The notes: a model not told the origin generated them from the letters alone. Shown: positions 20,497-36,351, counted from the first letter of the stretch. The stretch is 39,730 bases of DNA from a virus (IMGVR_UViG_3300045241_000132:1-39730), one strand, 5' to 3'. Translations and numbers: made by a program.

Positions 20497-20931
20497 CTAG
20501 GAGGCCGAGCCGCCGGTGACGGGGCCGGTGACCTTGAGGGTGACGGCGAGCCCTGCCACGCCGCCGCGCGGGAAGGAGTAGCCGAGGTTCGTGATGAGGC
20601 CGGTGAAGAACACCGCGAAGCCGGTGTCGGTGATGCGGATGCGGAAGTTCAGCACCTCGCGGTTGTGCTTGTGGGTGAGCATCGCCTCCTGAACGGCGTT
20701 GCCCGGCAGGTAGTGGCTCTGGAACGTGACCTCGCCGCCGTCCTGCAACGTCGCGAAGTACTCCTTGTAGCCGCCGTCGCTGTCCTGGTTGGTGACCTCG
20801 ATGGTGTCGGTCGTCTCGGCGGGGCCGTTGATGTCCTCGACTTCTAGAATATGAGCCCACGTTCCCGGTGTAAGTGGCTCCTCGTAATCAATTAGGAAGC
20901 CCGGGCCCGGGATAGCTACCGAAGTGGACAA
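20497..20931 (-). CDS. Major tail (tube) protein
   Basis: A 144-residue protein of the lambda gpV/TP901-1 type tail-tube fold: IEVTNQDSDGGYKEYFATLQ, GGEVTFQSHYLP and FFTGLITNLGYSFPRGGVAG. The C-terminus VTLKVTGPVTGG is the conserved last strand. It lies between the tail terminator and the chaperones, the expected place. Its start is a TTG (20931), eight bases after a strong GGAGGAAGGAG-like ribosome site made of purines; no ATG or GTG start fits. An own leader precedes it, unlike most genes here. Confidence 0.82.
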   Translation of the reverse strand: MSTSVAIPGPGFLIDYEEPLTPGTWAHILEVEDINGPAETTDTIEVTNQDSDGGYKEYFATLQDGGEVTFQSHYLPGNAVQEAMLTHKHNREVLNFRIRITDTGFAVFFTGLITNLGYSFPRGGVAGLAVTLKVTGPVTGGSAS

Positions 20932-21377: not shown

Positions 21378-21802
21378 CGGCGCACCTTCGTCTTCCGCCG
21401 GCGCGACGTGACCGAGCGGCCCGATTCGGCGGCGACGGTCTGCACGACGTTGCGGCGCATCGTGTCGAAGGCGCGCATAGCGACCGGGTGCGCCGCGATG
21501 GTCGGGCTACCGTACTCAAGGACGGCCGGGTAGAAGATGTCGTCGTCGGGCTCGGTCGATGCCGCCGCCGCGATCTCGATGGTGGCGTGCGTGCTCTTGC
21601 GGAACACCGGCGCGAGCACGATCGAGTCGCGGTAGTGGAAGGGCGGGTCGCCGACGAGGCCCTCGGTGACGATGTTGGCCTTCCAGCGGGCGGCCATCGG
21701 CGACGCGGCGTAGGCCAGGATGTCCAGCATCTCGTCGCCGTCGAGGGCGAGGTTGTCGAGCACCTCGTTGACCTCGCGCAGGTCGAGCGCCTCGCCGGTC
21801 AC
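21374..21802 (-). CDS. HK97 gp10-like neck/tail completion protein
   Basis: A 142-residue protein with the gp10 pattern: NEVLDNLALDGDEMLDILAY, ARWKANIVTEGLVGDPPFHY, FRKSTHATIEIAAAA, then PAVLEYGSP-IAAHP and RAFDTMRRNVVQTVA. The Y-P-x3-E-G-S/T segment and final helix are typical. The start GTG 21802 overlaps the fusion gene's stop; the longer reading from 22057 is a shadow of that gene. The basic end (TSRRRKTKVRR) is unusual but plausible. Confidence 0.78.
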   Translation of the reverse strand: MTGEALDLREVNEVLDNLALDGDEMLDILAYAASPMAARWKANIVTEGLVGDPPFHYRDSIVLAPVFRKSTHATIEIAAAASTEPDDDIFYPAVLEYGSPTIAAHPVAMRAFDTMRRNVVQTVAAESGRSVTSRRRKTKVRR

Positions 21803-23256
21803 GAGCCCAGCACCTCGGACTCCAGATAGAACTGGAGGTCGACGTTGTCGTACAGGTAGAGGTTCGTCCAGGTCGTGCCGCCGTCGAGCGTCCGCTGTCC
21901 GTCGCCATTGCCGAACACCTGCGACAGCAGGCCCTTGCTGCCGCCCTCCTGGAGCGGAACGGCGGTGTACTGCGTCGCCGCGCCCGTCGACAGCCGCAGG
22001 TTGTAGGTCTGGCCGTCGGTCAGGATGTGCGACGCCAGGAACGTCGCCGTCACCCATGTGTCGCCCTGAAGCGACGGCGCTGTGCCGTCGGGCAGCAGGC
22101 CGATCGCGATCTCGGATGCCGCGATGCTCACGGCTTCGATGAGCGTGCCGTCGCCGTCCTCGAGCCTGACCACCAACGCCTCGGTGCCTGCGATCCGCTT
22201 GAGCCTGACATGGGCCGCCGTCACCGTGACGTCGCCGGCCGAGATGGTGAAGCGCTGCCGGACCATATTCGCGGTCCCGGAGATGAGCCCGTACTTGTCC
22301 CAGAGCGTCCCGATGTAGCCCTGCCCATCGTGGCTACCGTCCGAGTACGCGAGGTCGAAGATCGGCAGGTGACCCGGCTGCAGCATCCAGCTCGTGGGCT
22401 CCGCGTAGAGCGTCGCGAAGTCGTCCGAGTACCCAGGCTGCCGCGGCGTCGGCATCGCCCCGAACGTGTAGAGCATGTTGAGGCTGATCCAGTTGTGGAC
22501 CGGGTCGGCCGCCACGTTGTCGAAGACGAGGTGGTAGAGCGTGTCCGCCGTCAGCGGTGCCGGCGGCGCGAACGTCAGAAGGGTCCACACCTCCCAGTTC
22601 CCGCCCGGGTTGCCCGGGTTCCACGTCAGGAAACCGAGCATCGTGCCATCGGGCTCGCCACCGACGTCCGCCTGGATGCTCGCGCGGATGGTCCCGCCGT
22701 CGCCGCCCGAGTAAACCGCCCCGCCGCGCTGCTGGACGCGGAGCGTCTGCGCCTGCGCCGTCGTGGACGCCCTGAAGCGATAGGACAGCCGGCCGTTGAG
22801 CGCCGCCCCGACCTGCTGGTTCGCGCGAGAGTCGCCCGACACGCCGCCGCCATAGACGCCGGGGACTAGGACCGGCGGGATCACCACGACCGGCGGCGCC
22901 TCTGCCCCGATCGTCTCGATGCGCGAGCAGACGAGCTTGGTGTGATGGTGGCGGCCGGCCTCGTCGTCGCGGCTGACCACGAGGTACGTCACCTCGGGCG
23001 ACACGTCGGTCTGGCGCACCCGGTCGAGATGGTCGACGTCGGTGCGGAATGCGGTGTAGATCGCGGCGTTGATGACGACCGGCCCGTCCACGTCGGGCAG
23101 CGCGAGGTTAGACGGCGCCTTGTCCTGGACGCTGGCCTTGACGCCCGCCGTCCAGCCCGACTCGGGATACGTGACCTCTTCCTCGCCCGTCTCGTTGGGC
23201 GTCACGACGCGCCGCTCGATGGTCACCGTGTTGACGAGAAGGCTGGACAGGCTCAC
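21799..23256 (-). CDS. Head-tail joining protein fused to a jelly-roll adhesin module
   Basis: A 485-residue fusion. Residues about 1-120 are a head-tail joining (head-closure) domain: SSLLVNTVTIERRVV, SGWTAGVKASVQDKAP, FRTDVDHLDRVRQTDV and VTYLVVSRDDEAGRHHHTKL. This domain alone is normally a complete protein. After a Pro/Val linker (APPVVVIPPVLVPGVYGG), residues about 145-480 are homologous over their full length to the adhesin-like protein at 1099-2295. The context between TagF-like and gp10-like genes is that of a neck protein. The fusion would place a binding domain around the neck, like whiskers or a collar. GTG 23256 overlaps the upstream stop (GTGA) and gives the normal domain start. 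Confidence 0.8.
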   Translation of the reverse strand: MSLSSLLVNTVTIERRVVTPNETGEEEVTYPESGWTAGVKASVQDKAPSNLALPDVDGPVVINAAIYTAFRTDVDHLDRVRQTDVSPEVTYLVVSRDDEAGRHHHTKLVCSRIETIGAEAPPVVVIPPVLVPGVYGGGVSGDSRANQQVGAALNGRLSYRFRASTTAQAQTLRVQQRGGAVYSGGDGGTIRASIQADVGGEPDGTMLGFLTWNPGNPGGNWEVWTLLTFAPPAPLTADTLYHLVFDNVAADPVHNWISLNMLYTFGAMPTPRQPGYSDDFATLYAEPTSWMLQPGHLPIFDLAYSDGSHDGQGYIGTLWDKYGLISGTANMVRQRFTISAGDVTVTAAHVRLKRIAGTEALVVRLEDGDGTLIEAVSIAASEIAIGLLPDGTAPSLQGDTWVTATFLASHILTDGQTYNLRLSTGAATQYTAVPLQEGGSKGLLSQVFGNGDGQRTLDGGTTWTNLYLYDNVDLQFYLESEVLGS

Positions 23257-24296
23257 GCGGCCACCGCGGCTTCCTGCCCAGCCCACTCCACGAGCGCCGT
23301 GGCGGCCCGTAGCGCCGCGTTCCCGTCGCGGTAGGCATATACGACGTCCAGCGCCGCCTCGCGGTTCTGGCGGATGCCCGGCGGATCGACGAGCGCGATG
23401 CGCACCGCCTCCGGTAGATCCGCCGGATCGTCAATTCTGACACCGACGTCGGCCGCCTCCCAGAAGCGCAGGCCGTGCTCGACGTTGCGGCGGTAGCCGA
23501 TGCCCTTGATGCGGCCTTCCGGCAGGTCGAGCACGACGACGGGCCGCCCCGTGGCCGCGAACTCGTACATCGAGCTGCTGTTGTCGCATACGTAGACGGC
23601 CGCCCTGCGCTGCACCTCGCGCAGGGAGGCCACGAACTCGATGTTGTTGCGGCGGGCCCACTGGGCGACCTCGAAGGCAATCCGCGGGTGGCCGTGGGCG
23701 ATGACGCGGCGGTGCTTCGACAGCTCGACGAAAGCGTCGCGGAAGAGCGGGAAGGCCGAGCGCGTTTCGGGACAGACCCGCGCGTCGAAGTGCGTCGAGA
23801 CGGCGATCACCTCGCCGTCGCGCTCGTAGGCGGGCAGGTTGTCGATGGGCGGTGAGCCGACCGTGACGACGGATGCGGTGGGATACGCCCGTCGCCACCG
23901 GTCGGCGGAATGTTCGTTGGGTGCGAGGAACAGGCCGACGCCATCCTGGCCGCGTCCACCTGCGTAGGACTCGTGGCGTGCCGCCTGGCTCTTCGGGTCG
24001 CCGGCGTAGCTCTGGCCGATGCCGTGCTCGATGCGGGCGATCCGCGTCCGCCCGCTGCGCCGTGCCGTCTGCACGTCGCCCCAGCTCGCCACGAAGGCGG
24101 GGTTGTCGCGTCGACCGCGGGTGTGGGCGGTCATCTCGATACCGAGACCGGGGCCGTCGGGAACGACGCCCGGCGCGGCGATGAACACGCCGCGCGCCTC
24201 GGGCGGCAGGGCGTGCCAGATCGGCGCGAGGTGAAGCGCGAAATGTGGCTCTCCGGCTACAAAATCCAGCCTCACTTCCTCTACACTATGCCTCAT
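23253..24296 (-). CDS. TagF/TagB-like CDP-glycerol-type transferase
   Basis: A 347-residue protein of the CDP-glycerol glycerophosphotransferase fold (GT-B). Family marks are IEHGIGQSY (His91, equivalent of the first HG), VIAHGHPR (His201) and VYVCDNSSSMYEFAATGRP (residues 235-252), the last being the D-x-SS-x-YEF donor site. Known members add polyol-phosphate to teichoic acids or capsules. In a phage neck operon this suggests modification of virion or host surface polymers. Length is near the soluble catalytic part only, with no membrane anchor. The start is uncertain: ATG 24296 shares CATG with the divergent HNH gene, and GTG at about 24275 is an alternative. Confidence 0.75.
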   Translation of the reverse strand: MRHSVEEVRLDFVAGEPHFALHLAPIWHALPPEARGVFIAAPGVVPDGPGLGIEMTAHTRGRRDNPAFVASWGDVQTARRSGRTRIARIEHGIGQSYAGDPKSQAARHESYAGGRGQDGVGLFLAPNEHSADRWRRAYPTASVVTVGSPPIDNLPAYERDGEVIAVSTHFDARVCPETRSAFPLFRDAFVELSKHRRVIAHGHPRIAFEVAQWARRNNIEFVASLREVQRRAAVYVCDNSSSMYEFAATGRPVVVLDLPEGRIKGIGYRRNVEHGLRFWEAADVGVRIDDPADLPEAVRIALVDPPGIRQNREAALDVVYAYRDGNAALRAATALVEWAGQEAAVAA

Positions 24297-24981
24297 GGAT
24301 TGCTCGGTTCCGAGTTGCGATAGGCGTGCGACCGGCCGAGGCTGGTGCGGTCCCCATTACCAGCGGTGGCATCGAACCGGTGACCCGTTGGGCTCGGTCC
24401 CCAATCGGCGAACAATCCCGCCGGGGGTCGTCGACGCGGCGATTACCCGGTTCCTTGCAGGCGAGACCGTGGCGGCCTTGGCGAAGGAATATGGGATCGC
24501 CGAGATCAACATCTACGGTGCGATGAAGAAGGCTGGCATTGCCCTTCCCAAGCGCCCTTTCACCGAGGAGCGACTGGCCAACATGAGCGCCGGCCTCCGT
24601 CGCCGTTACGCCGCCCGGCCAGCCCCGCCCCATCCACCGGACTGCACCCATTGCCTGGCCGTGCGCGGTGTGCCCAAGCCGCCGCGCACTCAGCTCCATC
24701 GGGACCGCATCTCGGCCGCGAGGCGAGCCATGTTCGGCGACCCTTCGGACTACACGACCGCACATTTCCGCATACGCCGTGATCGCGGACGAGCCCGTGA
24801 ACATGCCTGCGTCTCTTGCGGGCGTGCCGCGGTGGACTGGGCGCTGAAGGCCGATGCCCCGACTGAATGGCTCCGCAGCAACGGGCGTCTCTGGTTCTCG
24901 ATTCGCACCAGCGACTACGAGGCCAAGTGTCGAGCGTGTCATTACCGTGATGACAGCGCCCGTCGTCGCCCGCATCAGTAG
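24295..24981 (+). CDS. Plus-strand zinc-finger/HNH-like endonuclease, inserted
   Basis: A 228-residue protein on the plus strand inside the minus-strand late operon. The N-terminus CSVPSC..A-G-W-C-GPHYQRW (residues 3-25) is the zinc motif often seen in actinophage HNH proteins. Residues 40-70 form an HTH-like segment (LAKEYGIAEINIYGAMKKAG). The C-terminus has HACVSCG and KCRACHY, a Cys4/His zinc site as in Endo VII-like nucleases. It starts by sharing CATG with the TagF-like gene and ends 7 nt inside the transferase. It fits an inserted homing endonuclease. TACACT at 24283-24288 could be a -10 giving a leaderless mRNA. Confidence 0.7.
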   Translation: MDCSVPSCDRRATGRGWCGPHYQRWHRTGDPLGSVPNRRTIPPGVVDAAITRFLAGETVAALAKEYGIAEINIYGAMKKAGIALPKRPFTEERLANMSAGLRRRYAARPAPPHPPDCTHCLAVRGVPKPPRTQLHRDRISAARRAMFGDPSDYTTAHFRIRRDRGRAREHACVSCGRAAVDWALKADAPTEWLRSNGRLWFSIRTSDYEAKCRACHYRDDSARRRPHQ

Positions 24982-26678
24982 CCCGCCCCTGCCTTCACTT
25001 CGCCGATGTGACGGACATATGCCTCGCCCTCTCCCCAATGGGCAGCCACGGCTTGCGTATCGCGGAAGAGCGCCTCGGCGAACAGGCGCTCAGATGACTT
25101 GCCGTCGGGCCAGGGCACGCTTGTCAGCGACCGCCGGAACAGTGACGGGTTCGCGGTCCAGTAATTCCGGTGCTCAAACCAGCGGTGCCCGTTCTGTCGC
25201 TGGTGTGCAAACGACTCGACGGGCCAGCCCAAGATACCGCCGCGATCGATCTCGGACTGGTAAGTAGGCTCCCGCAGGAGCGCTACCTGCATGACGTGAG
25301 GCTGCGTCTCCAGCACATCTACGAACTGCCCCAGGTCGACATCGCGACCATAAATGAAATCGTCCTCGGTCAAAAACACATGGGGTCCGAGGGCCCTCGA
25401 TGCAACGTAACGCCAGAGCCGCTGCATCGAGGCCGTGTAGCCGTAGTGGCCGCCGCCGGCGACATAGAAGCCGTGCCGCCCCGCGATCTGCTCAAGGCCG
25501 AACGCGACGCGCGAATCCCAGTCGGAATAGAGCACCTTCTGCACGATCGGCCCGCTGACGTGCGCGGCCAGCGACGCCAGGCTCCGTTCGAGGTAGCCGC
25601 GCCGCGTCGGCCAGTTCTCGGCCGTGCCGCCGCTGTGGACGACGAGCGTGATGCCGCGCTCAGCGATACGTTCGCGCTCGCGCTCCTGGTCGTTGTGCTT
25701 CTTCGCCCCGTCGCGCAGTTCTTCGAGCGGCGGCCACCAGTCCCGCCACGCCACCGACTCGGGCATCCGCAGACGGGCCGCGAGCGCGAGGAAGCGCTTG
25801 TCGTCCTTCTTGAGGTTGCGGACGTGGAGACTTGCGCGGGCGGCCTCCAGGTGCTCCTCGCCCGGCAGGTCGCCCACCGCGTGATCGCGGATCGCGGCAA
25901 CCATGTAGCGCCTGCCGAGCAGGGCGTTGCGGACGTAGTCGGGCTTCGCCGTCAGCGCCGACTCGCCGTTGACGATGCGCTCATCCGAACGCTCGTGGAA
26001 CAGGTGGTACAGGTCGCCATCGATGCGCCTGTAGGGGTACAGGCCGCGGATCAACGCCGCCCATGCGCCGTCCTCGAAGCCCCAGCCCCGGAAGCGCTCG
26101 TCCATGCCCGCCGTGTCGTCCCAGACCATGCGTGGCACGGCGACGCAACACGACCAGGAGATGGGCGTCGTGCGCTGGATCAACTCGGCGATGTCCGGCT
26201 CCCAAGGCCCGACCGGGAACAGCATCCGGGCCATCCAGCCGAGTGCCGCCATGTTGTCGCCGACCGTATCTTCGACGAGCAGATCCATGTCGGTGCTGGC
26301 GGCCGGATCGTCGCCGAACGGATCCGGCCGCATGACGATCCGTTCCGTCTCGCGCTGATGGAGACCGCGCCAGCGCCGGTGTGCCCACGTCACCTTGCCC
26401 GCAGCGGCGCCCTCGATGGCGGCGCGGACCTGGCGCGTCGGGACGAAGACGTCGGCGTCGATGGCTATGGCGACGTCCCAGCGACCTTCGGCGTCGGCCA
26501 GAGCCGCGGCGCGGTTGATGGCCGCGCTCCGGTTGAACGGGCCCTCACTGGCGTCGTGGTGGCCCTCGTAGACGGGCAGATCGGGGAGGAGCGCCTGCCA
26601 GCGCGCCTTACACCACGCCCAGAGGCTGTCGCGGTGACCGCCGTCGGAGCGTCGTGGGACGAGGAGCACGACCCTCAT
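24975..26678 (-). CDS. Two-domain GT-A glycosyltransferase
   Basis: A 567-residue protein. Domain 1 (about 1-235) is a GT-A transferase: RSAAINRAAALADAEGRWDV, the D-x-D of IAIDADVFVP (Asp74, Asp76), and FRGWGFEDGAW (residues 196-206), the GWGxED acceptor motif of polypeptide GalNAc and chondroitin transferases. A charged linker (about 285-340) joins domain 2 (about 341-567): ITLVVHSGGTAENWP, VLYSDWDSR and FLTEDDFIYG, also GT-A-like. Two catalytic domains suggest a two-sugar product or polymer. It is coupled to the connector by ATGA, so it is made with the virion proteins. Donor and acceptor are unknown. Confidence 0.78.
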   Translation of the reverse strand: MRVVLLVPRRSDGGHRDSLWAWCKARWQALLPDLPVYEGHHDASEGPFNRSAAINRAAALADAEGRWDVAIAIDADVFVPTRQVRAAIEGAAAGKVTWAHRRWRGLHQRETERIVMRPDPFGDDPAASTDMDLLVEDTVGDNMAALGWMARMLFPVGPWEPDIAELIQRTTPISWSCCVAVPRMVWDDTAGMDERFRGWGFEDGAWAALIRGLYPYRRIDGDLYHLFHERSDERIVNGESALTAKPDYVRNALLGRRYMVAAIRDHAVGDLPGEEHLEAARASLHVRNLKKDDKRFLALAARLRMPESVAWRDWWPPLEELRDGAKKHNDQERERERIAERGITLVVHSGGTAENWPTRRGYLERSLASLAAHVSGPIVQKVLYSDWDSRVAFGLEQIAGRHGFYVAGGGHYGYTASMQRLWRYVASRALGPHVFLTEDDFIYGRDVDLGQFVDVLETQPHVMQVALLREPTYQSEIDRGGILGWPVESFAHQRQNGHRWFEHRNYWTANPSLFRRSLTSVPWPDGKSSERLFAEALFRDTQAVAAHWGEGEAYVRHIGEVKAGAGY

Positions 26679-27253
26679 CCCACGACCGAGAAGTGCGGGT
26701 AGCCGACGACGGCCATCATCGGCTCGGGGTTGAGGCGGGCGAGGGCGTCGGCCCGCTGTTGGTCGGGCGTCCTGCCGTCGGACGAGCCGAAGGACGCGCT
26801 GTAGTCGCCGATGCTCTCGGACTTGAGGCCGCCGCCACCGCCGCCAGAGCTGGACGCGAGGTCGATCCGCACGAGTTCGATCTGGACCGCCTCCCGGGTA
26901 GCCGTGTCGGCGACGGGCGTGTAGGTGAGGCTGATCTGGCCGTACCACGTCGAGCGTGGGTTCGTGCCGGTGTTGAGGCGCTCGAGGACGTAGCCGTCGG
27001 CACGGATGCGGTAGTCGTCGGCGTCGAGAGTCGTGGTTGTCGTGCCACGACTCTCGGTCACCGTCGTCATAGCGGACGCAGGGCGGGCGAGCGCTAGGCG
27101 TCCGACGCCGCCGTCGACGAGTTGCGTCACCTCGCCGGGCGGGCCAGCGTAGGCAACGATCGCCTCCTCGGCCGAATCGACCAGCCTCTGCAAGGAGGCG
27201 TCGTCGAGGTCGGTATCGACGTAGGCGCGAATCTCGTCGACGGTCAGGATCAT
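26675..27253 (-). CDS. Head-tail connector (HK97 gp6-like)
   Basis: A 192-residue protein of the gp6-like head-tail connector group. The N-terminal helices (TVDEIRAYVDTDLDDASLQR, LVDSAEEAIVAYAGPPGEVT) form the helical bundle, and the middle beta part (LDADDYRIRADGYVLERLNT) is typical of actinophage versions. The C-terminus carries a Gly run (about 143-148) and a SIGDYSASFGSSDG segment. It follows the capsid by 22 bases, the standard place. ATG 27253 is chosen because the upstream extension is a shadow of the capsid gene. Confidence 0.75.
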   Translation of the reverse strand: MILTVDEIRAYVDTDLDDASLQRLVDSAEEAIVAYAGPPGEVTQLVDGGVGRLALARPASAMTTVTESRGTTTTTLDADDYRIRADGYVLERLNTGTNPRSTWYGQISLTYTPVADTATREAVQIELVRIDLASSSGGGGGGLKSESIGDYSASFGSSDGRTPDQQRADALARLNPEPMMAVVGYPHFSVVG

Positions 27254-27275
27254 CGGTTCAGTTCCGGCGTCAGGG

Positions 27276-28535
27276 CTAGGAGCCGATGACGACGGCCTCG
27301 ACCTTGCAGAAGGCGATCGGCCGGTAGACCGCGAGCGCGAGGCGTTCCTCGGCCCGGACGGCCACCTTGTTCTTGGTGAAGTAGTCCTCGTTCTCGGTGC
27401 TGATCGCGACCGAGATGCCGGAGCGGCGGAAGACCTGCGCCTGGTTGAACGCACCGACCAGCAGCGTGTTCTCGAGGGCGTTCGTGGTCACGCGGACCTG
27501 GAGGCCCCACGGCCGCGCCGCGTTCGGGTCGAGCGTCGCCGGCCCGAGCAGGTAGTTGCCGGTCGTGTCCTTGCTCGCGCGGATGTTGAACCAGTCGTTG
27601 GGGTGGACGACCATCGCCGTCGGGTCGACGAAGGCGTTCGCCTGCACGAGCGTGATGGCGTGCAGGATCGAGTCGATCGTCGACTCGCCGTAGCCGGTGA
27701 CCGTCTGGACGCCGGTGCGGTTGTAGAGGCCGAGGATGGTGATGCCGGTGCCGGCGCCGCGGAGCAGTTGCAGCTCCTCGCGCTGCTTGACCATGAACGC
27801 CAGCCGGCCGCGGATGTAGGACTCGAACGCCGGGACGTCCTCCATCATCTCGTCGGTGACGGGAATCCACGTCGCGATCTTGCGGACGTTGTCCTGCCGC
27901 AAGGTGAAGTCGAGCGTTGACTCGGGCTTGAGGGCGCCCTCGTCCGTCTCGGCGGCGGCGTTGGTGTACGTCGTCTCCTGGTAGTAGCTCACGACCTGCG
28001 CGTTCGTCGTGCCCGAGAGCATGAGGTCGGCGACGGTGCGCTCCTCCTGCCCCGACAGGACGACGCTGGGCGCCCGCTGCTCGAGCGGCGTCAGGTCGGC
28101 CGACGTCAGGAGCGTCTTGATGGCGAGTTCGCCGATCTCGCCCCGGAAGCCGCCGAAGTTCTTGATGCCGTAGGTCGAGAGGCCCGTCGTCATCAGCTCG
28201 CGGATGCTCTTGATGCCCTCGGACAGGATGTCCTCCTGTCCCTGCGGCTGGCCCTCGCGGGACGAGCCGAGGTCGGGCTCGACCTGGCGCGGCGCGGAGC
28301 GCATCTGCTTCAGGGCGTCGGCGTTGGCGCGCTCGGATTCGCGCAACCCTTGCAGGTCGGCGACGCGGTCGTTGATCGGCGCCAGCTCATCGTTGAGGCT
28401 CTTGATGGCCGCGCCCATCTCGTCGCGCTTGGCGGGATCGGTGACCTTGTCCAGCTCGCGGAACATATCCGCGAGGCGGGTGCGCTTTGTCGCGAGTTCC
28501 TCGCTCGCTGCGATGAGGTCTGCCTGGATCGACAT
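27276..28535 (-). CDS. Major capsid protein, HK97 fold
   Basis: A 419-residue HK97-type capsid protein. Residues about 1-80 are the coiled-coil scaffolding (delta) domain; a Gln/Gly-rich linker (about 85-102) is the likely cleavage area for the upstream protease. The capsid core follows: YYQETTYTNAAAETDEGALK (E-loop region), RKIATWIPVTDEMMEDVPAF then a long helix (235-259, spine helix), GAGTGITILGLYNRTGV and MVVHPNDWFNIRASKD (A domain), ending PIAFCKVEAVV. ATG 28535 has a GAGGAG ribosome site and abuts the preceding stop (TAGATG). Confidence 0.93.
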   Translation of the reverse strand: MSIQADLIAASEELATKRTRLADMFRELDKVTDPAKRDEMGAAIKSLNDELAPINDRVADLQGLRESERANADALKQMRSAPRQVEPDLGSSREGQPQGQEDILSEGIKSIRELMTTGLSTYGIKNFGGFRGEIGELAIKTLLTSADLTPLEQRAPSVVLSGQEERTVADLMLSGTTNAQVVSYYQETTYTNAAAETDEGALKPESTLDFTLRQDNVRKIATWIPVTDEMMEDVPAFESYIRGRLAFMVKQREELQLLRGAGTGITILGLYNRTGVQTVTGYGESTIDSILHAITLVQANAFVDPTAMVVHPNDWFNIRASKDTTGNYLLGPATLDPNAARPWGLQVRVTTNALENTLLVGAFNQAQVFRRSGISVAISTENEDYFTKNKVAVRAEERLALAVYRPIAFCKVEAVVIGS

Positions 28536-28712
28536 CTAGATCGACTCCTCTCGGGTGGGTTCTTCCTTGCGTTGCCGCCTGAGTTCTTCGCGCTGCCCGA
28601 TCATCTGGGCCAGGCGTGCGCGGACGTAAGCCTCGAAGGCGGGCATGTCGGTCGACTCGTCCACCAACGGGACGAAGTCGTCCACCTCCACCTTCACGGT
28701 GATGACCTTCAC
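28536..28712 (-). CDS. 58-aa protein resembling the capsid spine-helix region
   Basis: A 58-residue ORF between protease and capsid, starting at GTG 28712 (TAGTG overlap) and ending directly before the capsid ATG. Residues 13-48 align with capsid residues 223-259: F-VPLVDEST-DMPAFE against W-IPVTDEMMEDVPAFE, then YVRARLAQM against YIRGRLAFM, then QREEL identical. From the shared PAFE on, 16 of 25 positions are identical. At DNA level similarity is only about 70% by eye, so it is an old duplication kept open. The N-terminus (MKVITVKVEVDDF) is short beta. It could bind the capsid subunit during assembly or be a relic; which is unknown. Confidence 0.7.
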   Translation of the reverse strand: MKVITVKVEVDDFVPLVDESTDMPAFEAYVRARLAQMIGQREELRRQRKEEPTREESI

Positions 28713-29596
28713 TAGACCGGCACGCCGTAGAAGCGGGCCCGGATCAGTTCCAGTTCGATGTCCGTCGTCGCCTTGGCGCCCTCCTTCGGTGCATCGGCGT
28801 TCGAGAAGAGTTCGTCCATGTCGTCGGCGACGCTGCGCAGGGTGGCCGGGTGCGTGCCGAGACGAGTGCGCGTGGCGGCCGACAGGACGCGACCGGCCTT
28901 CAGCATCCACTCGTCGGGCGCCTCGCCGAACGCGTCGCCGGCGGCGTCGAGATGGGCCATCAGAGCGGCCGACTTGACGAAGTGGACGACCGTGACCGGG
29001 TTCGCCGGGATGGGCGTCATGCTGAGTTCGACCCACGGCCAGCGGGTGATCTCGCCGCCCGCGCTCTTGGTGGCGAGGTGGCCCATTGCGCCCGAGCTGT
29101 AGCCGAGCGCGCCCTCCGCGATGAGCTGGTCGACGGCCTTGCGATAGCGGGCGTTGCGGCTCAGTTGGGCCTGCGCCCAGACGCCCTCGTCGCGGACTTC
29201 GTAGTCGACCTGGCGGCCGATCGTCTCGGACTTGAGATCGTCGTCGAGGCCGTGGTCGTAGAGGACGGGCCTCCCTGCCTTGCCGAACCAGTCGAGGCAC
29301 AGGTCGGTCGCCTTGGTGAAGTACTCGCCGTCGAGGTCGCGGTCCTCGGGCGAGCCCCACGGGATCGCGAGGCCCTCGACGGTGTCGGGCCCGACGAACT
29401 TCAGGGCCATGACGGCGGCGCTCTTCGTCGTCGCCGCGCAGTTCTTGGCCGCGGTGTGCGCGATGCGGAAGGCGCGGTCCTCGCTGTTGTGGGCGTCGAA
29501 GTCGTCGTTCCAGACCGTGCGAAAGACCGTCTGGCAACGCTCGCTGTAGGCATCGCGCACGGCGGCCGGCAGGTCCGCGTTGGTGCTATACGGCAT
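28712..29596 (-). CDS. ChaB domain-prohead protease fusion
   Basis: A 294-residue protein. Residues about 1-52 are a ChaB-like domain (MPYSTNADLPAAVRDAYSER, HNSEDRAFRIAHTAAKN). Residues about 65-210 are a prohead serine protease of the HK97 type: VEGLAIPWGSPEDRDLDGEY, His115 in VLYDHGLDDD, Ser167/168 in LGYSSGAMGH and Glu190 in WVELSMTPIPANP. The C-terminus may act as scaffold and be trimmed. It would cleave the delta domain of the neighbouring capsid. ChaB-protease fusions occur in actinobacterial phages. ATG 29596 has an AGGAGG ribosome site. Confidence 0.85.
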   Translation of the reverse strand: MPYSTNADLPAAVRDAYSERCQTVFRTVWNDDFDAHNSEDRAFRIAHTAAKNCAATTKSAAVMALKFVGPDTVEGLAIPWGSPEDRDLDGEYFTKATDLCLDWFGKAGRPVLYDHGLDDDLKSETIGRQVDYEVRDEGVWAQAQLSRNARYRKAVDQLIAEGALGYSSGAMGHLATKSAGGEITRWPWVELSMTPIPANPVTVVHFVKSAALMAHLDAAGDAFGEAPDEWMLKAGRVLSAATRTRLGTHPATLRSVADDMDELFSNADAPKEGAKATTDIELELIRARFYGVPV

Positions 29597-29706
29597 GCAA
29601 AAGGCCTCCTGCCGCGCTCACGGGGCTTATCCGCGCGGTGTAGAGGCCCTTCGGGAAACTCCGACTCGGTCCTGAACGGGACTGCGGAGACTGATTACGC
29701 GGCAGA
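29597..29706 (-). promoter_or_regulatory. Gap before the protease gene
   Basis: A 110-nt stretch without an ORF between the DUF115-like gene and the protease. It contains the AGGAGG ribosome site of the protease. I see no convincing promoter or terminator, but this is one of the few breaks in the coupled operon and separates the glycan genes from the capsid genes, so separate control of the head genes from here is possible. Confidence 0.25.
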
Positions 29707-30438
29707 TTAGGCGATGGCGGGCACCGTGTCTAGATTGATCTGAACGCCGGGCCCGCCGTCGAAGCGATGTCCCTCGAGCGCCCAGTTCAGGAACGGATTG
29801 AGGCTCCAGATGCGGACGCCGTAACGCTCGACGAGTTGCGCCTTCACGCCTCGCGACTGCGCCTCCAGGGCGATCAGCCAATCCTTGTTCTGGGTCGAGT
29901 AGCCCAACGCCGCCTCCGCCCGCCCGTAGCCCTTCATGTAGGGCGAGTCATCGAGTTGACCAGCGTCATGCCCGACCAGAATGACTGTCGCGGCACCTAA
30001 GACGCACGCGAAATGCATCGCCGACGTGATGGTCGACATGCTGACCACGAGGCTGCCGTCGTCCGGCGGCCAGTCGCCGGCGGCATCGAAGTCGCCCGAG
30101 CGATTCGGAAGATGGTCGAACACGTAGAGGTTCGGCAACGCGAGCATCGGCGTCTCGTCGAGCGGCAAGAAGCCACGACCAGGATCGCCATAACTGTGCC
30201 GGGACACGATGAGCGGCGTGTTCGGGTGGTCGGCCGCCGCCATCAGCAGCGACTCGCGATGCTCCTTCAGCACCACCGCCGTCGGCGTGATGCCCCACGT
30301 TGAAGCGACCTCGTTGACCGTCACCACGAGCTTGTCGCGGAACCATTCGCGGTCAAAGTGCCCGAGCGAGGCACCCGCCCCGAGGACGTAGATGTCCGAT
30401 CCAGGCCACCTGTTCCGTAGGATGCGGATCGACTTCAG
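29707..30438 (-). CDS. DUF115/Maf-like glycosyltransferase-related protein, CTG start
   Basis: A 243-residue protein. I extend it to CTG 30438, which forms a 4-nt CTGA overlap with the upstream stop, five bases after an AGGTGA ribosome site. This adds IYVLGAGASLGHFDREW (from about residue 19), the GxGxSL motif that begins the DUF115/Maf (6-HMPPK-like) fold; the next usable start (GTG 30327) would lose it. Later marks are SLVVSMSTITSAMHFACVLG and AATVILVGHDAG. Maf proteins attach nonulosonic sugars to Ser/Thr of flagellin. Adjacent to a cytidylyltransferase, which could make the activated sugar. The residues that decide activity are not certain, so relation to Maf is at family level. Confidence 0.65.
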   Translation of the reverse strand: MKSIRILRNRWPGSDIYVLGAGASLGHFDREWFRDKLVVTVNEVASTWGITPTAVVLKEHRESLLMAAADHPNTPLIVSRHSYGDPGRGFLPLDETPMLALPNLYVFDHLPNRSGDFDAAGDWPPDDGSLVVSMSTITSAMHFACVLGAATVILVGHDAGQLDDSPYMKGYGRAEAALGYSTQNKDWLIALEAQSRGVKAQLVERYGVRIWSLNPFLNWALEGHRFDGGPGVQINLDTVPAIA

Positions 30439-31211
30439 AGATCACCTCTGGCCGTCGACCACGAATGCACCGCGTCCAACGGTTCCCTTGAATAGAAATA
30501 CTGGGGCGCGCCGCGGTTGAGACTCATCCAGTCGGGGAAGGCTTCGAGCACCCGCAGGATGTCGTCGAGGCGGAAGTCGGGGTTCTCGGGCCAGAGCACG
30601 CCGAGGATGCGCCGCACGAGCTCGAGATCCTGCGGGAAGTCGACCGTCAGGCGGTGCGACTCGTAGAGGCTCGGCTCGATGGTGACCGTCGTGCGCGGGT
30701 AGCGCAGCGGCCGGCGGGCGAACCACGGCACGACGTGCTCGCGCTCGTCCGAGTTGAGCGACTCGCGATCGGCCTCCTCCATCGCGTCGGCCGTCCAGGC
30801 CCAGCAGTTCATGCCCAAGGGGAACCCGCAAGATTCGGCGTAGGGGAACTCGTCGGACACGAGGTCGGCCACCGCGTCCACGAGCGGCGCCTGGAGGAAT
30901 GGGTCGTCGGCGCCCGACAGCACGAGGACGTCGGCGTCCGCCTCGCGGGCCACCTTCGCGTGGCGGGCGATGAGGTCGGACGTGGAGCCGCGCACGCACC
31001 GCATCTTCATGTCACGGGCGAGCGCGGCAATGGGATCGTCGCTGGCGTCCTCCGTCGTGGCGATCACGACCTCGGCCCTGCTCTTGCGCAGGCGTTGCAC
31101 CTGGTACCAGAGCATCGGGTGCGTCTCGCCGCCGACCTCGATAGGCGCGAGTACCTTGCCGGGCATGCGTGCCGACTTCATGCGCGCCGGTATCGACAGG
31201 ACGGCCCTCAC
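30435..31211 (-). CDS. SpsF-like sugar-acid cytidylyltransferase
   Basis: A 258-residue protein of the SpsF/CMP-KDO and CMP-nonulosonate synthetase fold, which activates sugars as CMP derivatives. Motifs: IPARMKSARMPGKVL (residues 7-21, the CTP loop, SpsF type), ADVLVLSGADDPFL (93-105, metal-binding Asp pair) and DEREHVVPWF (155-164, the REHV-x-P signature of SpsF). All expected blocks are present, so it is likely active. GTG 31211 overlaps the stop of the 74-aa gene. Such genes are rare in phages and normally serve surface glycans; here the partner seems to be the DUF115-like gene. Confidence 0.82.
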   Translation of the reverse strand: MRAVLSIPARMKSARMPGKVLAPIEVGGETHPMLWYQVQRLRKSRAEVVIATTEDASDDPIAALARDMKMRCVRGSTSDLIARHAKVAREADADVLVLSGADDPFLQAPLVDAVADLVSDEFPYAESCGFPLGMNCWAWTADAMEEADRESLNSDEREHVVPWFARRPLRYPRTTVTIEPSLYESHRLTVDFPQDLELVRRILGVLWPENPDFRLDDILRVLEAFPDWMSLNRGAPQYFYSREPLDAVHSWSTARGDL

Positions 31212-31432
31212 AGGTCAGTCGCCGACGGCGCGCAGCGGAGGTCGAACGGCTCGCCCGTCTCCATCGACCCCTGCCGGTATACCCAGATCGTCCGGTCGTG
31301 GTCGGGATGCGCGTCGGCGTACTCGCGCGGGACTTGGTACATCAGGTTCGCCGGCAGCTCGCCCGTCTCCAGCAGGCGCTCCGTCAGCTTCGCCACTTCC
31401 GGGCTGAACGTCGACACCCACTCGGTCCACAT
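31208..31432 (-). CDS. 74-aa protein of unknown function
   Basis: A 74-residue ORF from ATG 31432 with a strong GGGAGGAG ribosome site five bases upstream, read in a different frame within the 3' end of the GT4-like gene. Sequence is soluble and mixed (TFSPEVAKLTERLLETGELP, MYQVPREYADAHPDHDRTIW), with normal amino-acid composition, unlike the overlapping GT4 tail. It is coupled to the SpsF-like gene (GTGA). No domain is recognised; it may be a small partner of the sugar enzymes. Confidence 0.6.
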   Translation of the reverse strand: MWTEWVSTFSPEVAKLTERLLETGELPANLMYQVPREYADAHPDHDRTIWVYRQGSMETGEPFDLRCAPSATDL

Positions 31433-32558
31433 CGCTCTCCTCCCGCAACGTCGCCCAGCCCTTGCCCTCGAGGAGCATGAGCTGCTGGAAATAGGCGTCA
31501 TATTTCTCGGCCGCCACGTCGGTTGACCAGCGCTTGATCGCGTACTCGCGGATCGCTCTGCGGTCCAGCTTCTCGGCCGCCCGCGCCGCATCGACGAATG
31601 CTTGGAGCGGCGCTCGGCAGCGGTAGCCGTTGACACCGTTCTCCACCAGCTCGACGAACGCCCCGAAGTCCGACGTGATGACCGGCGTCCCGCAGAAGTT
31701 GGGCTCCGCGCATCCGGCGCCGCCCCACGGCTCGGCGTAGAGGGTCGGGCCCCATACGACGGCAGCCTCGCCCATGAGGCGGGCACGATCGACCGGGCCG
31801 ACGGGCCCGAGGTGCGTGATGTGGTCGCCCTCGATGGTGCTGTCGAGGCCGCGGAAGGTGCTGCCGTTCCGCTCGATGAGCCCGGGCCCGATCATCACCA
31901 AGGGCACCTTCAACGCGGCGGTTGCCTGGACGGCGACGGCGATGCCCTTCCTGCCGATGAACCGTCCGGCGAAGAGGTGGAAGCCGCCCTTGCCCTCCCC
32001 GTATGGCAGCTCGTCGGGTGAGTACGAGTTGCCGATCACGACGTCGTACTGGCGATGGTCGAGGTTGTCTCGGCCGGCGAGGTAGTGCTCCCACGCGTGG
32101 CTCTCGAAGACCCTGAACGGCGCGAAGACGCCCGAGTAGCCGATGCCGGTCTCGACGGTGTACAGGCCCATGTCGGCGAGCGCCATCGCGATCGGCTGGT
32201 GCGCCTGGCCCATCGTCAGGCCGAGGATGTCGCCCTTCACGGCCCGCTTGCGGATCTCGGCAGCGGCTCGGCCGTTGAACACCTTCCACGGCTCGAGGCT
32301 CGTGTCGTAGTTATTCCAGACCTCGAGGTGTGGCGAGAAGCCCGGGAACCAGCGCTCGCGCTCCTCGGCCGACACCAGCGGCACGAACTGCGCCACGTCC
32401 GATTCGTTCCTCGACGAACCGTATAGGACGACGCGGTAGCCCTTGCCCGTGAGCATCCCGCCGAGGCGGCGCGTCTTGGCGCTGTAGGCGTCGGGCTCCC
32501 ACGCCCGCGTCGTCTCGGAGTGCGGGCCCGGGCCGACGAGGTGGACCGTCGGCTTCAC
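31215..32558 (-). CDS. GT4-like (GT-B) glycosyltransferase
   Basis: A 447-residue reading frame from GTG 32558 (GTGA overlap). It is a GT-B transferase: N-terminal domain with VHLVGPGPHSE and LGGMLTGKGYRVVLYGSSRN; C-terminal donor domain with AGRFIGRKGIAVAVQATAAL, VPLVMIGPG and the E-x7-E motif in AEPWGGAGCAEPNFCGTPVI followed by DFGAFVELVENGVNGYRC. Normal GT4 sequence runs to about residue 375 (TLREES). The last 70 residues overlap the 74-aa gene by 218 nt and look like shadow-frame sequence, so the original stop may have been lost or a frameshift may be present. Donor and acceptor unknown. Confidence 0.78.
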   Translation of the reverse strand: MKPTVHLVGPGPHSETTRAWEPDAYSAKTRRLGGMLTGKGYRVVLYGSSRNESDVAQFVPLVSAEERERWFPGFSPHLEVWNNYDTSLEPWKVFNGRAAAEIRKRAVKGDILGLTMGQAHQPIAMALADMGLYTVETGIGYSGVFAPFRVFESHAWEHYLAGRDNLDHRQYDVVIGNSYSPDELPYGEGKGGFHLFAGRFIGRKGIAVAVQATAALKVPLVMIGPGLIERNGSTFRGLDSTIEGDHITHLGPVGPVDRARLMGEAAVVWGPTLYAEPWGGAGCAEPNFCGTPVITSDFGAFVELVENGVNGYRCRAPLQAFVDAARAAEKLDRRAIREYAIKRWSTDVAAEKYDAYFQQLMLLEGKGWATLREESDVDRVGVDVQPGSGEADGAPAGDGRAAGEPDVPSPARVRRRASRPRPDDLGIPAGVDGDGRAVRPPLRAVGD

Positions 32559-33694
32559 AGGACGCCCGGGTTCTGGTGGTTGACGAAGCCGTGACGGGGA
32601 ACGTAGGTGACGACGGCCGACGGCGTCCACGCGACGTAGATGCCCATGAAGGCGACCATCGCGATGCGCGTGCTCGACGTGACCTGTGTGACGCGCATCA
32701 CGGGAGCCGTCCCGAGCGTTACGGACGGGCTCGTCGTCAGCGTCCCGAGCGATGCCTTCCAGCCCGTGGGCCATGTGCCGCCTGCCACGCCCGACCAGAA
32801 CGCACCCGCCGTGCCGCCTGCCCCGAGGGCGATATTGGTGATGGCCGGGTTGCTTGCCACGCCGACCGTTCCAGCCTTGGCCGAGGTCACGACCGGCGCG
32901 GCCGTGGAGACGACCGGCTGCACGGCCAGCACGGTGTCGCCCGTCGCGATGCCAGCGGCGGCGTAGGTCGTCATGGTGGCGTCGTAGTTGACGTTGGCGT
33001 TGCTGGTCGCATTACGGATCTGAGCCGTCGTGCCTGTGTCGGCGACAGCCGTCGGCGGCTCGTTGTTGACCGCATCCCATAGGCCCGTCGTGCCACCCGA
33101 GCCGAGCGTCCAGCCGGTTCCCACGGCGCTGTCGGCGGTCGGGACGAGCAGCGCCACCTTGGACGGCGACAGGAAGCCCGCGCCGTCGATGATCACGTCG
33201 TCGTAGTAGGCGTCGAGCGCCGTCGCCTCGGTGCCACCCGCTCCCACGGCCATCAGGTTGCCGATCGGGTTGATGAAGGAACTCAGGTCATTCACGCCGT
33301 TGACCTGGACCCAAGGGCCGGTGAAACCGCCTGCGACGCCGCGGAAGCCGATCCAGTACCACTGCCCTGTCGCGAGAGTTGCCGTGCTGTCAGCTCCGCC
33401 CACGGATGTTCGCAGCTTGCCGCTCGACGTCAGGTACAGGTTCACGGTGCCGCCGGCGATGGCGATCGAGACAGTGGCGGTGGGCAGGGTCGCGAGATAC
33501 AGACCGAAATGGAGCCATCCATCGAGGGTTGAGACTTGCGTTGTGGCCGCAGACCCCGAAACCTTCTGGCAACGCAGCGAGCGGGTGCCGGTACGGGCCT
33601 GGACCGTGCTGTAGGCCATCGGGCCGGTGAAAACGAGGCCGCCATCGAGACTGACTGCGGCGCTCTCGAAGCCGGTCATAAAGGTGACAGCCAT
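32555..33694 (-). CDS. Concanavalin-like/lectin-type virion protein
   Basis: A 379-residue beta protein from ATG 33694. Residues about 1-170 resemble a LamG/ConA-like lectin domain: FMTGFESAAVSLDGG, TGTRSLRCQKVSGS, WLHFGLYLATLPTATVSIAI, QWYWIGFRGVAG and the end strand YYDDVIIDG. The rest (GWTLGSGGTTGLWDAVNNEP and on) is a second beta domain found in phage and metagenome proteins. It comes right after the collagen-like fibre (TGATG overlap) and likely forms the fibre's partner or tip. Carbohydrate binding is inferred from the fold. Confidence 0.65.
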   Translation of the reverse strand: MAVTFMTGFESAAVSLDGGLVFTGPMAYSTVQARTGTRSLRCQKVSGSAATTQVSTLDGWLHFGLYLATLPTATVSIAIAGGTVNLYLTSSGKLRTSVGGADSTATLATGQWYWIGFRGVAGGFTGPWVQVNGVNDLSSFINPIGNLMAVGAGGTEATALDAYYDDVIIDGAGFLSPSKVALLVPTADSAVGTGWTLGSGGTTGLWDAVNNEPPTAVADTGTTAQIRNATSNANVNYDATMTTYAAAGIATGDTVLAVQPVVSTAAPVVTSAKAGTVGVASNPAITNIALGAGGTAGAFWSGVAGGTWPTGWKASLGTLTTSPSVTLGTAPVMRVTQVTSSTRIAMVAFMGIYVAWTPSAVVTYVPRHGFVNHQNPGVL

Positions 33695-36351
33695 CAGACC
33701 CGATTGAAGGCGATCATCACGCCGATGAGGCTGGCATCGACGGCCAGCGTGTCGCCCGAATCGGACGGCAGGCGGTTGACGCGGAACTGGATGTAGTCGC
33801 CCGCCGCCGGTGCGCCGGTGACGGCGATGCCGGTCGTGGCCGGGCTGATCTGGAGCTGGAGTGCCGTCGCGGTGTGGGCGTCGTTGACGCCGGTCGCCGT
33901 CGAGTACGCCTGGTCGAGCGTCTCGCTGTCGCCCCACGCCCGCGCCGCGAGCTGCCACGTCACGCCGTTCGTCGAGGTGCCGCTGGCGGTCCAGTAGAAC
34001 TGCGCCGTGATGACGCCCGCATCCCAGTCGGACGGCATCGCCAGGCCGCCCTCGGCGTTCTCCTGGTTGGTGGCGTCGAAGTCCAGGGCGTAGTAGTTCA
34101 CCTTGTTCGTCGCCGACTCGTACTTCGTGTTGGCCGACGCGCCCGACGTCGTCGAGGGCCACATGCCCGCGGCGGTCAGGAAGATCTGGCCGGCGGGCTT
34201 GGCGCCCGTGCTGCCGGTCACGCCCGTCGGACCCGTCGTGCCCGCGCCCGTGACCCCGACGGCGCCCGTCAGGCCGGTTGCGCCCGTGACACCTGCGACG
34301 CCGGTCAGCCCTGATCCGGTGAGGCCGACGGGGCCCGTGACGCCGTTCGTGCCCGCCGTTCCCGTGACGCCGGTGATGCCCTGGACGCCTTGGATGCCAG
34401 TGGCGCCCGTGATCCCTTGGACGCCTTGAGTGCCGGTGGCGCCAGTCAGACCGGTTACGCCCTGCGTCCCGGTCGCTCCAGTCAGGCCATTCGTCCCGGC
34501 CGTGCCGGTTGCACCGCTGACGCCGATCGAGCCCGTGTTGCCGACGCTGCCCGTGAGCCCCGTCGTCCCGGTGTTGCCCGCGATCCCGGTAGCGCCCGTG
34601 AGGCCGTCGGTGCCGCCGGGCGCGAACGAGATCGTGGTGTTGCCCGCAGTCGTGGTGAGGGCGTTGCCGGAGCTGACGTAGGACACGCCGAGCTTGCGGT
34701 AGCCGGTCACGGTGGTGACGGTCTGCAGGCTGAACACCACCCACGCCGTGAGGTCGCTGGCGTCGAAGAAGCGGACGGTGCCCTTGTTGACCGCGGCCAC
34801 GTCGTCGAGCGCGTCGAGAAGAGTCGTCAGGACGTTGCCGTTGAAGTCGACGAGGTCGATGAAGATCTGCGTGACGTTGGCGTAGGTGGCGTTGTTGAAG
34901 CGCATGTTGCCCGAGCCGGGGTCGGCGTCGGTCGTGGTGGTGCTGAACGTGTAGCGGAACGAGTTGCCACCGGCGGTGCCAATCGGGCCCGTTGCGCCCG
35001 TGACGCCGGTTGCGCCAGTCGTACCGACACCGGTGACACCCGCGACGCCTGTCAGACCCTGGACGCCGGTGACACCGATGGCGCCCTGCGGTCCGGTCGC
35101 TCCTGTCGTACCTACGCTTCCGGCCGGCCCGGTGGCACCCGTCGTCCCGGCGACTCCTGCCGGGCCCGTGGCGCCAGTCACGCCCGTCAGGCCGCTGCCC
35201 GTGAGCCCGACTGGTCCGGTTAGCCCGTTTGTCCCGGCCGTCCCCGTCACGCCAGTCAGGCCGGATCCGGTGAGCCCCGTCGTCCCGGTCAATCCCTGGA
35301 TGCCCGTCAGGCCGACGGAACCCGTGACGCCGGCCACGCCCTGGATGCCCTGTGTGCCTGTCGCCCCGGTCTGTCCCGTCCCTTGCGGGCCCGTGGCACC
35401 CGTCAGGCCGTTCGTTCCGGCGGTGCCAGTGACGCCCTGGACGCCCTGCGTCCCTTGGCTGCCAGTCGCTCCGGTCAGTCCGTTCGTCCCGGCCGTTCCG
35501 GTGAGTCCCTGGACGCCTTGCGTTCCCTGCGTTCCCGTCAGGCCCTGGACGCCTTGCGTCCCTTGGGCGCCGGTCAGTCCCTGAATGCCCTGAGAGCCCG
35601 ACAGGCCGACGGAGCCGGTTGTTCCGGGCGGACCCTGCGTTCCGGTTGCCCCGGTCTGTCCGGCGGTTCCCGCGCTGCCCTGCGGACCCGTCGCACCGGT
35701 CAGCCCTGAGCCGGTGAGGCCGACGGGGCCCGTGAGGCCTGCCGGGCCCTGCGTACCCGTGGCACCCGATGCGCCGCCGCCCGGCCCGGTGACGCCGGAG
35801 GCGCCCGTGACCCCTGCCCCGGTGGCGCCCGTCTGGCCCGCCGGCCCGGTGCTGCCGGCCGTCCCGGTGGCGCCCGTCGGCCCTGGCGCTCCGCTGGCAC
35901 CGCCACCCGGACCCGTGGCGCCGGCCGGACCCGTGGCACCCGTCGCACCCGCGCCCGAGCTGCCGCCGCCGTTACCGCCACCACCACCGCCTGCCGGACC
36001 CATCGGACCCGTGTAGCCGCGCGGACCCTGCGGTCCCGGGCCGCCCCGTCCGTCCTGTCCCTTCAGACCTCGAGGGCCAGTGGCGCCCGTCAGACCAGCG
36101 CCGGTTTCGCCCTTGACGCCGGTCTGGCCCTGGCGGCCGATCGGCCCGATGAAGCCACGCGGACCGGCTGGCCCCGTGTCACCTGTCGGCCCCGGGTCAC
36201 CCGTGGGCCCCGGGTCGCCCTGTTGGCCGCGTGGACCTGTCTCGGCCTGCGGACCCGTCGGCCCCGTCTCGCCGGTCGGGCCCTGGAGGGTGAGCCCAGT
36301 GGCGATCAGGCCGGCGGCGACGCCCTGCGCGATGTCGGTCGCATCGCTCAC
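33694..36351 (-). CDS. Long collagen-like fibre with two globular domains
   Basis: An 885-residue protein. Residues about 20-460 and about 583-717 are uninterrupted Gly-X-Y repeats ([23 protein letters not shown] types) with Thr very often in the Y position. Between them is a beta domain (about 460-582: [37 protein letters not shown]), a module known from phage fibres, and the C-terminus (about 717-885: [37 protein letters not shown]) is a probable trimer head. Fully extended, 575 collagen residues would be about 165 nm. It starts at GTG 36351, coupled to the portal. Thr-rich collagen repeats are known O-glycosylation sites in Bacillus BclA. Confidence 0.82.

What the first reader, a model, noticed from the sequence alone, without database searches (positions are those of the whole stretch)
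23253..32558. Glycan-enzyme cassettes embedded in the head/neck operon
Five sugar enzymes lie between standard HK97-type head genes, in the same strand and translationally coupled to them: GT4-like, SpsF-like cytidylyltransferase and DUF115/Maf-like before the protease-capsid genes, and a two-domain GT-A transferase and TagF/TagB-like transferase between the two connectors. Coupling to virion genes implies late expression, when the virion is built, rather than lysogenic conversion. Known precedent: some mycobacteriophages glycosylate capsid or tail proteins. A set that includes donor activation, transfer and a polyol-phosphate-type transferase would be broader than a single transferase. The substrate is inferred to be the virion (or the host surface late in infection).
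Basis: partly seen in the sequence, partly recalled or inferred. Interest (0 to 1): 0.78.

Follow-up and report, generated by a model that had tools for sequence, protein, structure and literature searches.

The report
Phage genes that sugar-coat its virion
This uncultured phage carries sugar-adding enzymes inside its capsid gene block, and phages with such enzymes almost always have capsid proteins that end in a serine, a probable attachment point, which suggests that sugar-coated phage particles are far more widespread than the few mycobacteriophage cases known.

Summary
The five enzymes are real. Between portal and protease lie a GT4 transferase, a CMP-sugar-type cytidylyltransferase and a weakly supported DUF115-like protein. 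Between the head-tail adaptor and stopper lie a two-domain GT-A transferase and a TagF/TarL-like transferase. Most junctions are 4-nt overlaps; an HNH-like gene on the other strand interrupts the second cassette. The TagF-like gene recurs in over 50 phage loci, in the head-neck operon wherever head genes were recognised, with varying partner enzymes. The first GT-A domain is homologous to Che8 gp109 and Firecracker gp35, from mycobacteriophage groups reported to glycosylate virions. New evidence on the substrate: major capsid proteins of cassette phages end in Ser (18/18; out of sample 29/31), usually -GS or -AS, against 8/61 of portal-related controls. In named isolates it is 6/6 with and 0/9 without GT genes. 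Tail-tube and stopper proteins usually carry the tag too; portal, adaptor, tail terminator and tape measure rarely do. Best explanation: late O-glycosylation of C-terminal serines on capsid, stopper and tail tube. The collagen fibre is an occasional companion (11/93 cassette loci, 0/78 controls), not the general substrate. New variant of a known kind; glycan chemistry untested.

The parts
38116..39708 (-). terminase large subunit
   Evidence: ORF, first gene of the late operon; clusters with TerL genes of other loci
36348..37976 (-). portal protein (PF04860 in close relatives)
   Evidence: 93% identical to the L032 portal, which matches PF04860 at 6e-104
33694..36351 (-). collagen-like fibre, 885 aa, Thr in the Y position of 66 of 154 G-X-Y triplets
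   Evidence: PF01391 1.8e-57; triplet count; start overlaps portal stop by 4 nt
32555..33694 (-). LamG-like virion protein, unassigned
   Evidence: no Pfam or PHROG match; overlaps collagen stop by 1 nt
31215..32558 (-). GT4 glycosyltransferase; catalytic part ends near 31431, the rest of the frame overlaps a small ORF
   Evidence: PF00534 2e-11, phrog_3408 7e-40; 54% identical homologue beside a collagen gene in L012
31208..31432 (-). small ORF, 74 aa, between GT4 and cytidylyltransferase
   Evidence: 90% identical in L032, GC3 in its frame
30435..31211 (-). SpsF/KdsB-type cytidylyltransferase (CMP-sugar synthesis)
   Evidence: PF02348 1e-18; PDB 6oew 1.8e-18; 4-nt overlap
29707..30438 (-). 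DUF115/MptE-like candidate transferase, CTG start
   Evidence: PF01973 E 0.13 only; 79% identical in L032, dN/dS 0.16
28712..29596 (-). capsid maturation protease
   Evidence: phrog_80 1e-4
27276..28535 (-). major capsid protein, C-terminus ..AVVIGS: predicted glycan acceptor
   Evidence: PF05065 2.5e-44; C-terminal Ser test
26675..27253 (-). head-tail adaptor (first connector)
   Evidence: phrog_442 2e-11
24975..26678 (-). two-domain GT-A glycosyltransferase: N domain GT7/GalNAcT-like, C domain GT2-like with EDD motif
   Evidence: phrog_1721 and phrog_3047; fold; N domain homologous to Che8 gp109 and Firecracker gp35
24295..24981 (+). HNH endonuclease-like gene inserted against the operon
   Evidence: phrog_4160 2e-21, phrog_1271 HNH 8e-7
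23253..24296 (-). short TagF/TarL-like transferase, marker gene of the cassette
   Evidence: PF04464 4e-7; family alignment with invariant EHG, HP and DN.S motifs
21799..23256 (-). head-tail stopper (Phage_HCP-like) with a C-terminal extension of about 350 aa, ends ..EVLGS: predicted acceptor
   Evidence: PF05521 0.03; L011 orthologue without extension ends ..GVGS
20497..20931 (-). major tail protein, ends ..GGSAS: predicted acceptor
   Evidence: phrog_158 8e-17; C-terminus
14094..14648 (-). tail-end protein of unknown function, ends ..NPAGS: possible further acceptor
   Evidence: C-terminus only

Best explanation
The two cassettes form a virion O-glycosylation system expressed from the late operon. 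While capsid and tail proteins are made, the GT-A protein adds sugars to an exposed C-terminal serine (-GS or -AS) on the major capsid protein, the head-tail stopper and the tail-tube protein, and further enzymes extend or cap the glycan. In this phage the extension set includes the TagF/TarL-like transferase (perhaps adding a polyol phosphate or another nucleotide-activated unit), a GT4, and a cytidylyltransferase with a DUF115-like protein that may add a CMP-activated sugar. Shown: gene content, position, conservation, homology of one domain to mycobacteriophage virion-glycosylation loci, and the statistical link between the cassette and the C-terminal Ser tag. Inferred: the acceptor residue, the order of steps, the donors, and late timing.
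For: MCP ends in Ser in 18/18 cassette loci against 8/61 portal-related controls (p 6e-12), across MCPs falling in three sequence clusters. In loci found only by the GT N domain, 29/31 distinct new MCPs end in Ser (p 2e-14). Named isolates: 6/6 with GT genes (Che8 ..KTGS, Firecracker ..LVGS, GD91-2 ..SSGS, Neville ..PDPS, OwlsT2W ..PDGS, Fryberger ..YAGS) against 0/9 without. Tail tube and stopper usually carry the tag; portal, adaptor, terminator and tape measure rarely. N domain homologous to Che8 gp109 and Firecracker gp35, about 95 bits. Firecracker, like Corndog, has an O-methyltransferase and GT genes between portal and protease (PMC4351075). Citing papers report glycans at the C-termini of mycobacteriophage capsid and tail-tube subunits (PMC12619734, PMC12363180). 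TagF-like gene in the head-neck operon of many unrelated phages, including Rctr41k, whose capsid ends ..AEGS and tail protein ..LPGS. Purifying selection.
Against: No glycan or enzyme activity has been measured. L003 has the tag on all three proteins but no cassette in its 8-kb fragment, so the tag may have another role or the enzymes lie elsewhere. L019 has the MCP tag but its tail protein ends in Thr and its stopper lacks the tag. The MCP sample is not phylogenetically independent. The window C domain is not detectably homologous to Che8 gp110 or Corndog gp38, the enzymes reported as essential (PMC12363180). The distance-to-head-gene test alone was not significant (p 0.18), and the operon-interval test only modestly so (0.003).
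Confidence: 0.8

Rival explanations
1. The enzymes act on the host surface late in infection or in lysogeny (superinfection exclusion or serotype conversion), for example by altering teichoic acid or other wall glycans.
For: The phage is temperate (integrase PF00589); the TagF-like enzyme resembles teichoic acid polymerases; phage GT genes are known morons.
Against: No flippase or polytopic Gtr-like protein recognised and no predicted membrane helix in the GT-A and TagF-like proteins; genes sit inside and are mostly coupled to head genes, no internal promoter-like site; does not explain the C-terminal Ser signature.
Confidence: 0.1
2. The glycans decorate the Thr-rich collagen-like fibre encoded next to the first cassette, as on BclA-type bacterial collagens.
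For: Thr in 66 of 154 Y positions; collagen in 11/93 cassette loci against 0/78 controls; collagen adjacent to GT4 in L012 and between GT-A and TagF in L007.
Against: About 88% of cassette loci show no collagen in the stretch held; the fibre lacks the C-terminal tag (..AFNRV). Could be an additional substrate rather than the main one.
Confidence: 0.15
3. The GTs glycosylate phage DNA bases.
For: Phage GTs with this role are known in other phages (cited in PMC12619734).
Against: No base hydroxymethylase, TET or thymidylate-synthase-like gene among the ORFs scanned (not exhaustive); position with head genes; the protein C-terminal tag.
Confidence: 0.03

Closest known systems
Mycobacteriophage virion glycosylation (Che8, Corndog, Myrna; Freeman et al. 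2023, known here through citing papers)
   Same: Phage-encoded GTs; N domain homologous to Che8 gp109 and the Corndog-group gp35; GT cassette between portal and protease as in Corndog/Firecracker; capsid and tail tube end in Ser.
   Different: Adds a TagF/TarL-like transferase, a cytidylyltransferase, a DUF115-like protein and a GT4; second cassette between adaptor and stopper; the stopper also tagged; no clear gp110/gp38 homologue.
TagF/TarL teichoic acid polymerases (PF04464)
   Same: PF04464 match over cut-off; His-Pro and Asp-x-Ser-Ser motif region aligns with TarL.
   Different: Short (about 300-350 aa), no CDP-glycerol synthase recognised in the window, found inside phage head operons.
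Serotype-converting gtr cassettes of temperate phages
   Same: Phage-borne glycosyltransferases.
   Different: No flippase or membrane transferase recognised; late structural operon instead of lysogeny region.

Membership tests
Phage virion O-glycosylation system (mycobacteriophage type) | glycosyltransferase homologous to those of Che8/Corndog group | tested here: met
   N domain vs Che8 gp109 2.7e-28 and Firecracker gp35 3.7e-28 at Z = 1000
Phage virion O-glycosylation system (mycobacteriophage type) | homologue of the essential Che8 gp110 / Corndog gp38 | tested here: inconclusive
   C domain E 0.56 and 0.75 only; C domain alternatives differ between phages
Phage virion O-glycosylation system (mycobacteriophage type) | capsid and tail-tube C-termini suited as acceptors | tested here: met
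   MCP ..VVIGS, MTP ..GGSAS; 47/49 vs 8/61 in metagenomic loci, 6/6 vs 0/9 in isolates
Phage virion O-glycosylation system (mycobacteriophage type) | covalent glycans on virion proteins | not testable with these tools
   needs mass spectrometry
PF04464 Glyphos_transf (TagF/TarL-like) | profile match over curated cut-off | tested here: met
   29.8 bits vs 22.1
PF04464 Glyphos_transf (TagF/TarL-like) | polyol-phosphate transfer from CDP-polyol | not testable with these tools
   no CDP-polyol synthase recognised in the window
PF01973 MptE-like / DUF115 | profile match over curated cut-off | tested here: not met
   12.5 bits vs 34.6; fold prediction failed
PF02348 CTP_transf_3 (SpsF/KdsB type) | profile match over curated cut-off | tested here: met
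   68.4 bits vs 22.6
gtr serotype-conversion cassette | membrane flippase and polytopic transferase | tested here: not met
   GT-A and TagF-like proteins have no window above KD19 1.6; single hydrophobic peaks of 1.8-2.0 in GT4 and DUF115 look like buried Rossmann-type segments; no flippase found

The most novel reading that the evidence does not exclude
C-terminal -[GA]S tags on capsid, stopper and tail tube are a general acceptor code for virion glycosylation: reading the last residues of phage capsid proteins predicts which phages in nature make sugar-coated virions, across phages of several bacterial phyla, with glycans that in this lineage are extended by teichoic-acid-type and CMP-sugar chemistry not known on a virus of bacteria.
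Probability: 0.4. Interest if true: 0.85.

Novelty: new variant of a known kind. Interest (0 to 1): 0.7.

Why it matters
Virion glycosylation of phages has been demonstrated in a few mycobacteriophages. This analysis points to a modular, widespread system in uncultured phages, with relatives found in records binned with Chloroflexi, Actinomycetota and Acidobacteria, and gives a simple sequence test (a terminal Ser on capsid and tail-tube proteins) that can be checked in any isolate by mass spectrometry. It also suggests a substrate for GT, methyltransferase and nucleotide-sugar genes usually filed as auxiliary metabolism.

Tried and rejected
DUF115 structure prediction failed with two sequences (pLDDT 40), so no fold claim is made. 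A distance-only enrichment test for TagF near head genes was not significant (p 0.18); an operon-interval test gave 0.003. Foldseek hits of the GT-A protein to collagen glycosyltransferases (LH3, Mimivirus R699) have TM scores of about 0.25 and reflect generic tandem GT-A folds, so they are not used for the collagen hypothesis. Host assignment was not achieved: the family is rare in Chloroflexota (1 of 301 genomes with a full match) and Actinomycetota (2 of 396 with a strong match). SpsF, DUF115 and GT4 scans of viral contigs found only the sister contig; the GT4 has one further relative, in L012. No open paper on CDP-glycerol transferases in viral contigs was found; Freeman et al. 2023 is not held, so whether it already names the terminal serine could not be checked.

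Full report
Observation. The window is a 39.7-kb virus record, 68% GC. The late operon runs on the - strand: terminase, portal, collagen fibre, LamG-like protein, GT4, a small ORF, cytidylyltransferase, DUF115-like, protease, capsid, adaptor, two-domain GT-A, TagF-like, stopper, gp10-like, tail terminator, tail tube, tape measure. Most junctions overlap by 1-4 nt. The chain is broken between DUF115 and protease (110 nt, where the sister contig L032 holds an HNH gene) and between GT-A and TagF (678 nt, a + strand HNH-like gene). An integrase, a RecT and a YqaJ exonuclease mark a temperate phage.

Relatives. L032 (MCP 98% identical) keeps GT4, small ORF, cytidylyltransferase, DUF115 and GT-A in order; L011 keeps TagF next to the stopper. 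L003 (MCP 63%) runs portal-protease-MCP-adaptor-stopper with no cassette in its 8-kb fragment. dN/dS of the enzymes is 0.12-0.34. GT4, cytidylyltransferase and DUF115 are otherwise rare; GT4 recurs beside a collagen gene in L012.

The TagF-like family is common: 21 viral contigs in the first scan, 34 of 65 further loci found by the GT N domain, and 2 of 80 portal-related controls, where it again lies between MCP and adaptor. In every record with a recognised portal or capsid gene it lies within about 7 kb of one. That distance test alone is not significant, because contigs are short; lying between terminase (or portal) and tape measure in all seven testable contigs has a product probability of 0.003. 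Partners vary: GT-A with a GT2-like or a GT32 second domain, separate genes for the two domains in L063, FkbM and other methyltransferases, GDP-mannose dehydratase, a Polysacc_synt_2 dehydratase, GT2. None of 33 longer portal-related control records holds a GT2 domain. The only named carrier found by TagF is Rctr41k, where the gene sits between capsid/protease and head morphogenesis genes.

Link to known biology. The GT-A N domain is homologous to Che8 gp109 and Firecracker gp35, about 95 bits. Firecracker, like Corndog, carries an O-methyltransferase and GT genes between portal and protease (PMC4351075). Papers citing Freeman et al. 2023 state that Che8, Corndog and Myrna have glycosylated proteins, that Che8 gp110 and Corndog gp38 are essential for capsid glycosylation, and that glycans sit at the C-termini of capsid and tail-tube subunits (PMC12363180, PMC12619734). 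That paper itself was not available.

The C-terminal tag. This lead prompted a check of C-termini. In cassette loci all 18 MCPs end in Ser, 17 in -GS or -AS, across MCPs of three sequence clusters, against 8 of 61 MCPs from portal-related and other loci without a cassette (p 6e-12). The test was then repeated on loci fetched by the GT N domain: 29 of 31 distinct new MCPs end in Ser (p 2e-14). Because one MCP cluster had no cassette-free controls, named isolates of that cluster were examined: only OwlsT2W and Fryberger end in Ser, and only those two of the ten have a GT by profile search. With Che8, Firecracker, GD91-2 and Neville the count is 6/6 against 0/9. Six of seven tail-tube proteins and most stopper proteins carry the tag; portal, adaptor, tail terminator and tape measure rarely do. 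In the window the tag is on MCP (..VVIGS), tail tube (..GGSAS), stopper (..EVLGS, after a long extension that L011 lacks; L011 ends ..GVGS) and a tail-end protein (..NPAGS). The tag was noticed in the first data set before it was counted there; the set and the isolates are the independent part.

Interpretation. The simplest reading is late O-glycosylation of C-terminal serines on surface virion proteins. Which enzyme primes, which donors are used and what the TagF-like enzyme adds are inferences. The cytidylyltransferase suggests a CMP-sugar, not CDP-glycerol, so it does not supply the TagF-like enzyme in any obvious way. The collagen fibre is enriched (11/93 against 0/78, p 0.001) but absent from most cassette loci, and lacks the tag.

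Limits. No chemistry was tested. MCP lineages are not independent samples. The controls come from other portal relatives and may differ in host. DUF115 is unproven. Host unknown.

Noticed in passing
window 24295-24981 +: HNH-like gene inserted against the late operon between GT-A and TagF; the sister contig L032 has a different HNH gene (PF01844) between DUF115 and protease.
   Followed up: partly
window 31208-31432 and 31215-32558: A 74-aa ORF overlaps the end of the GT4 frame; dS there is 0.10 against 0.57 in GT4, which fits dual coding or a recombination joint.
   Followed up: partly
window 28536-28715: Short ORF between protease and MCP resembles an internal MCP segment (54% over 36 aa) and has no counterpart at that place in L032.
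   Followed up: no
window 21799-23256: Stopper protein carries an extension of about 350 aa absent from L011, yet still ends in -GS; the ORF at 1099-2295, with a weak DUF4082 match, clusters with it.
   Followed up: partly
window 30435-30445: DUF115-like gene appears to start at CTG, overlapping the previous stop by 4 nt, behind a strong ribosome-binding site (AGAGGTGA).
   Followed up: partly
window 31215-32558 (GT4): GT4 is a mosaic: 5' half nearly identical to L032, 3' half diverged, with an altered spacing in the E-x7-E region.
   Followed up: partly
L003 1-8261: Cassette-free fragment whose MCP, tail tube and stopper all carry the C-terminal tag; predicts GT genes elsewhere in that phage.
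   Followed up: no
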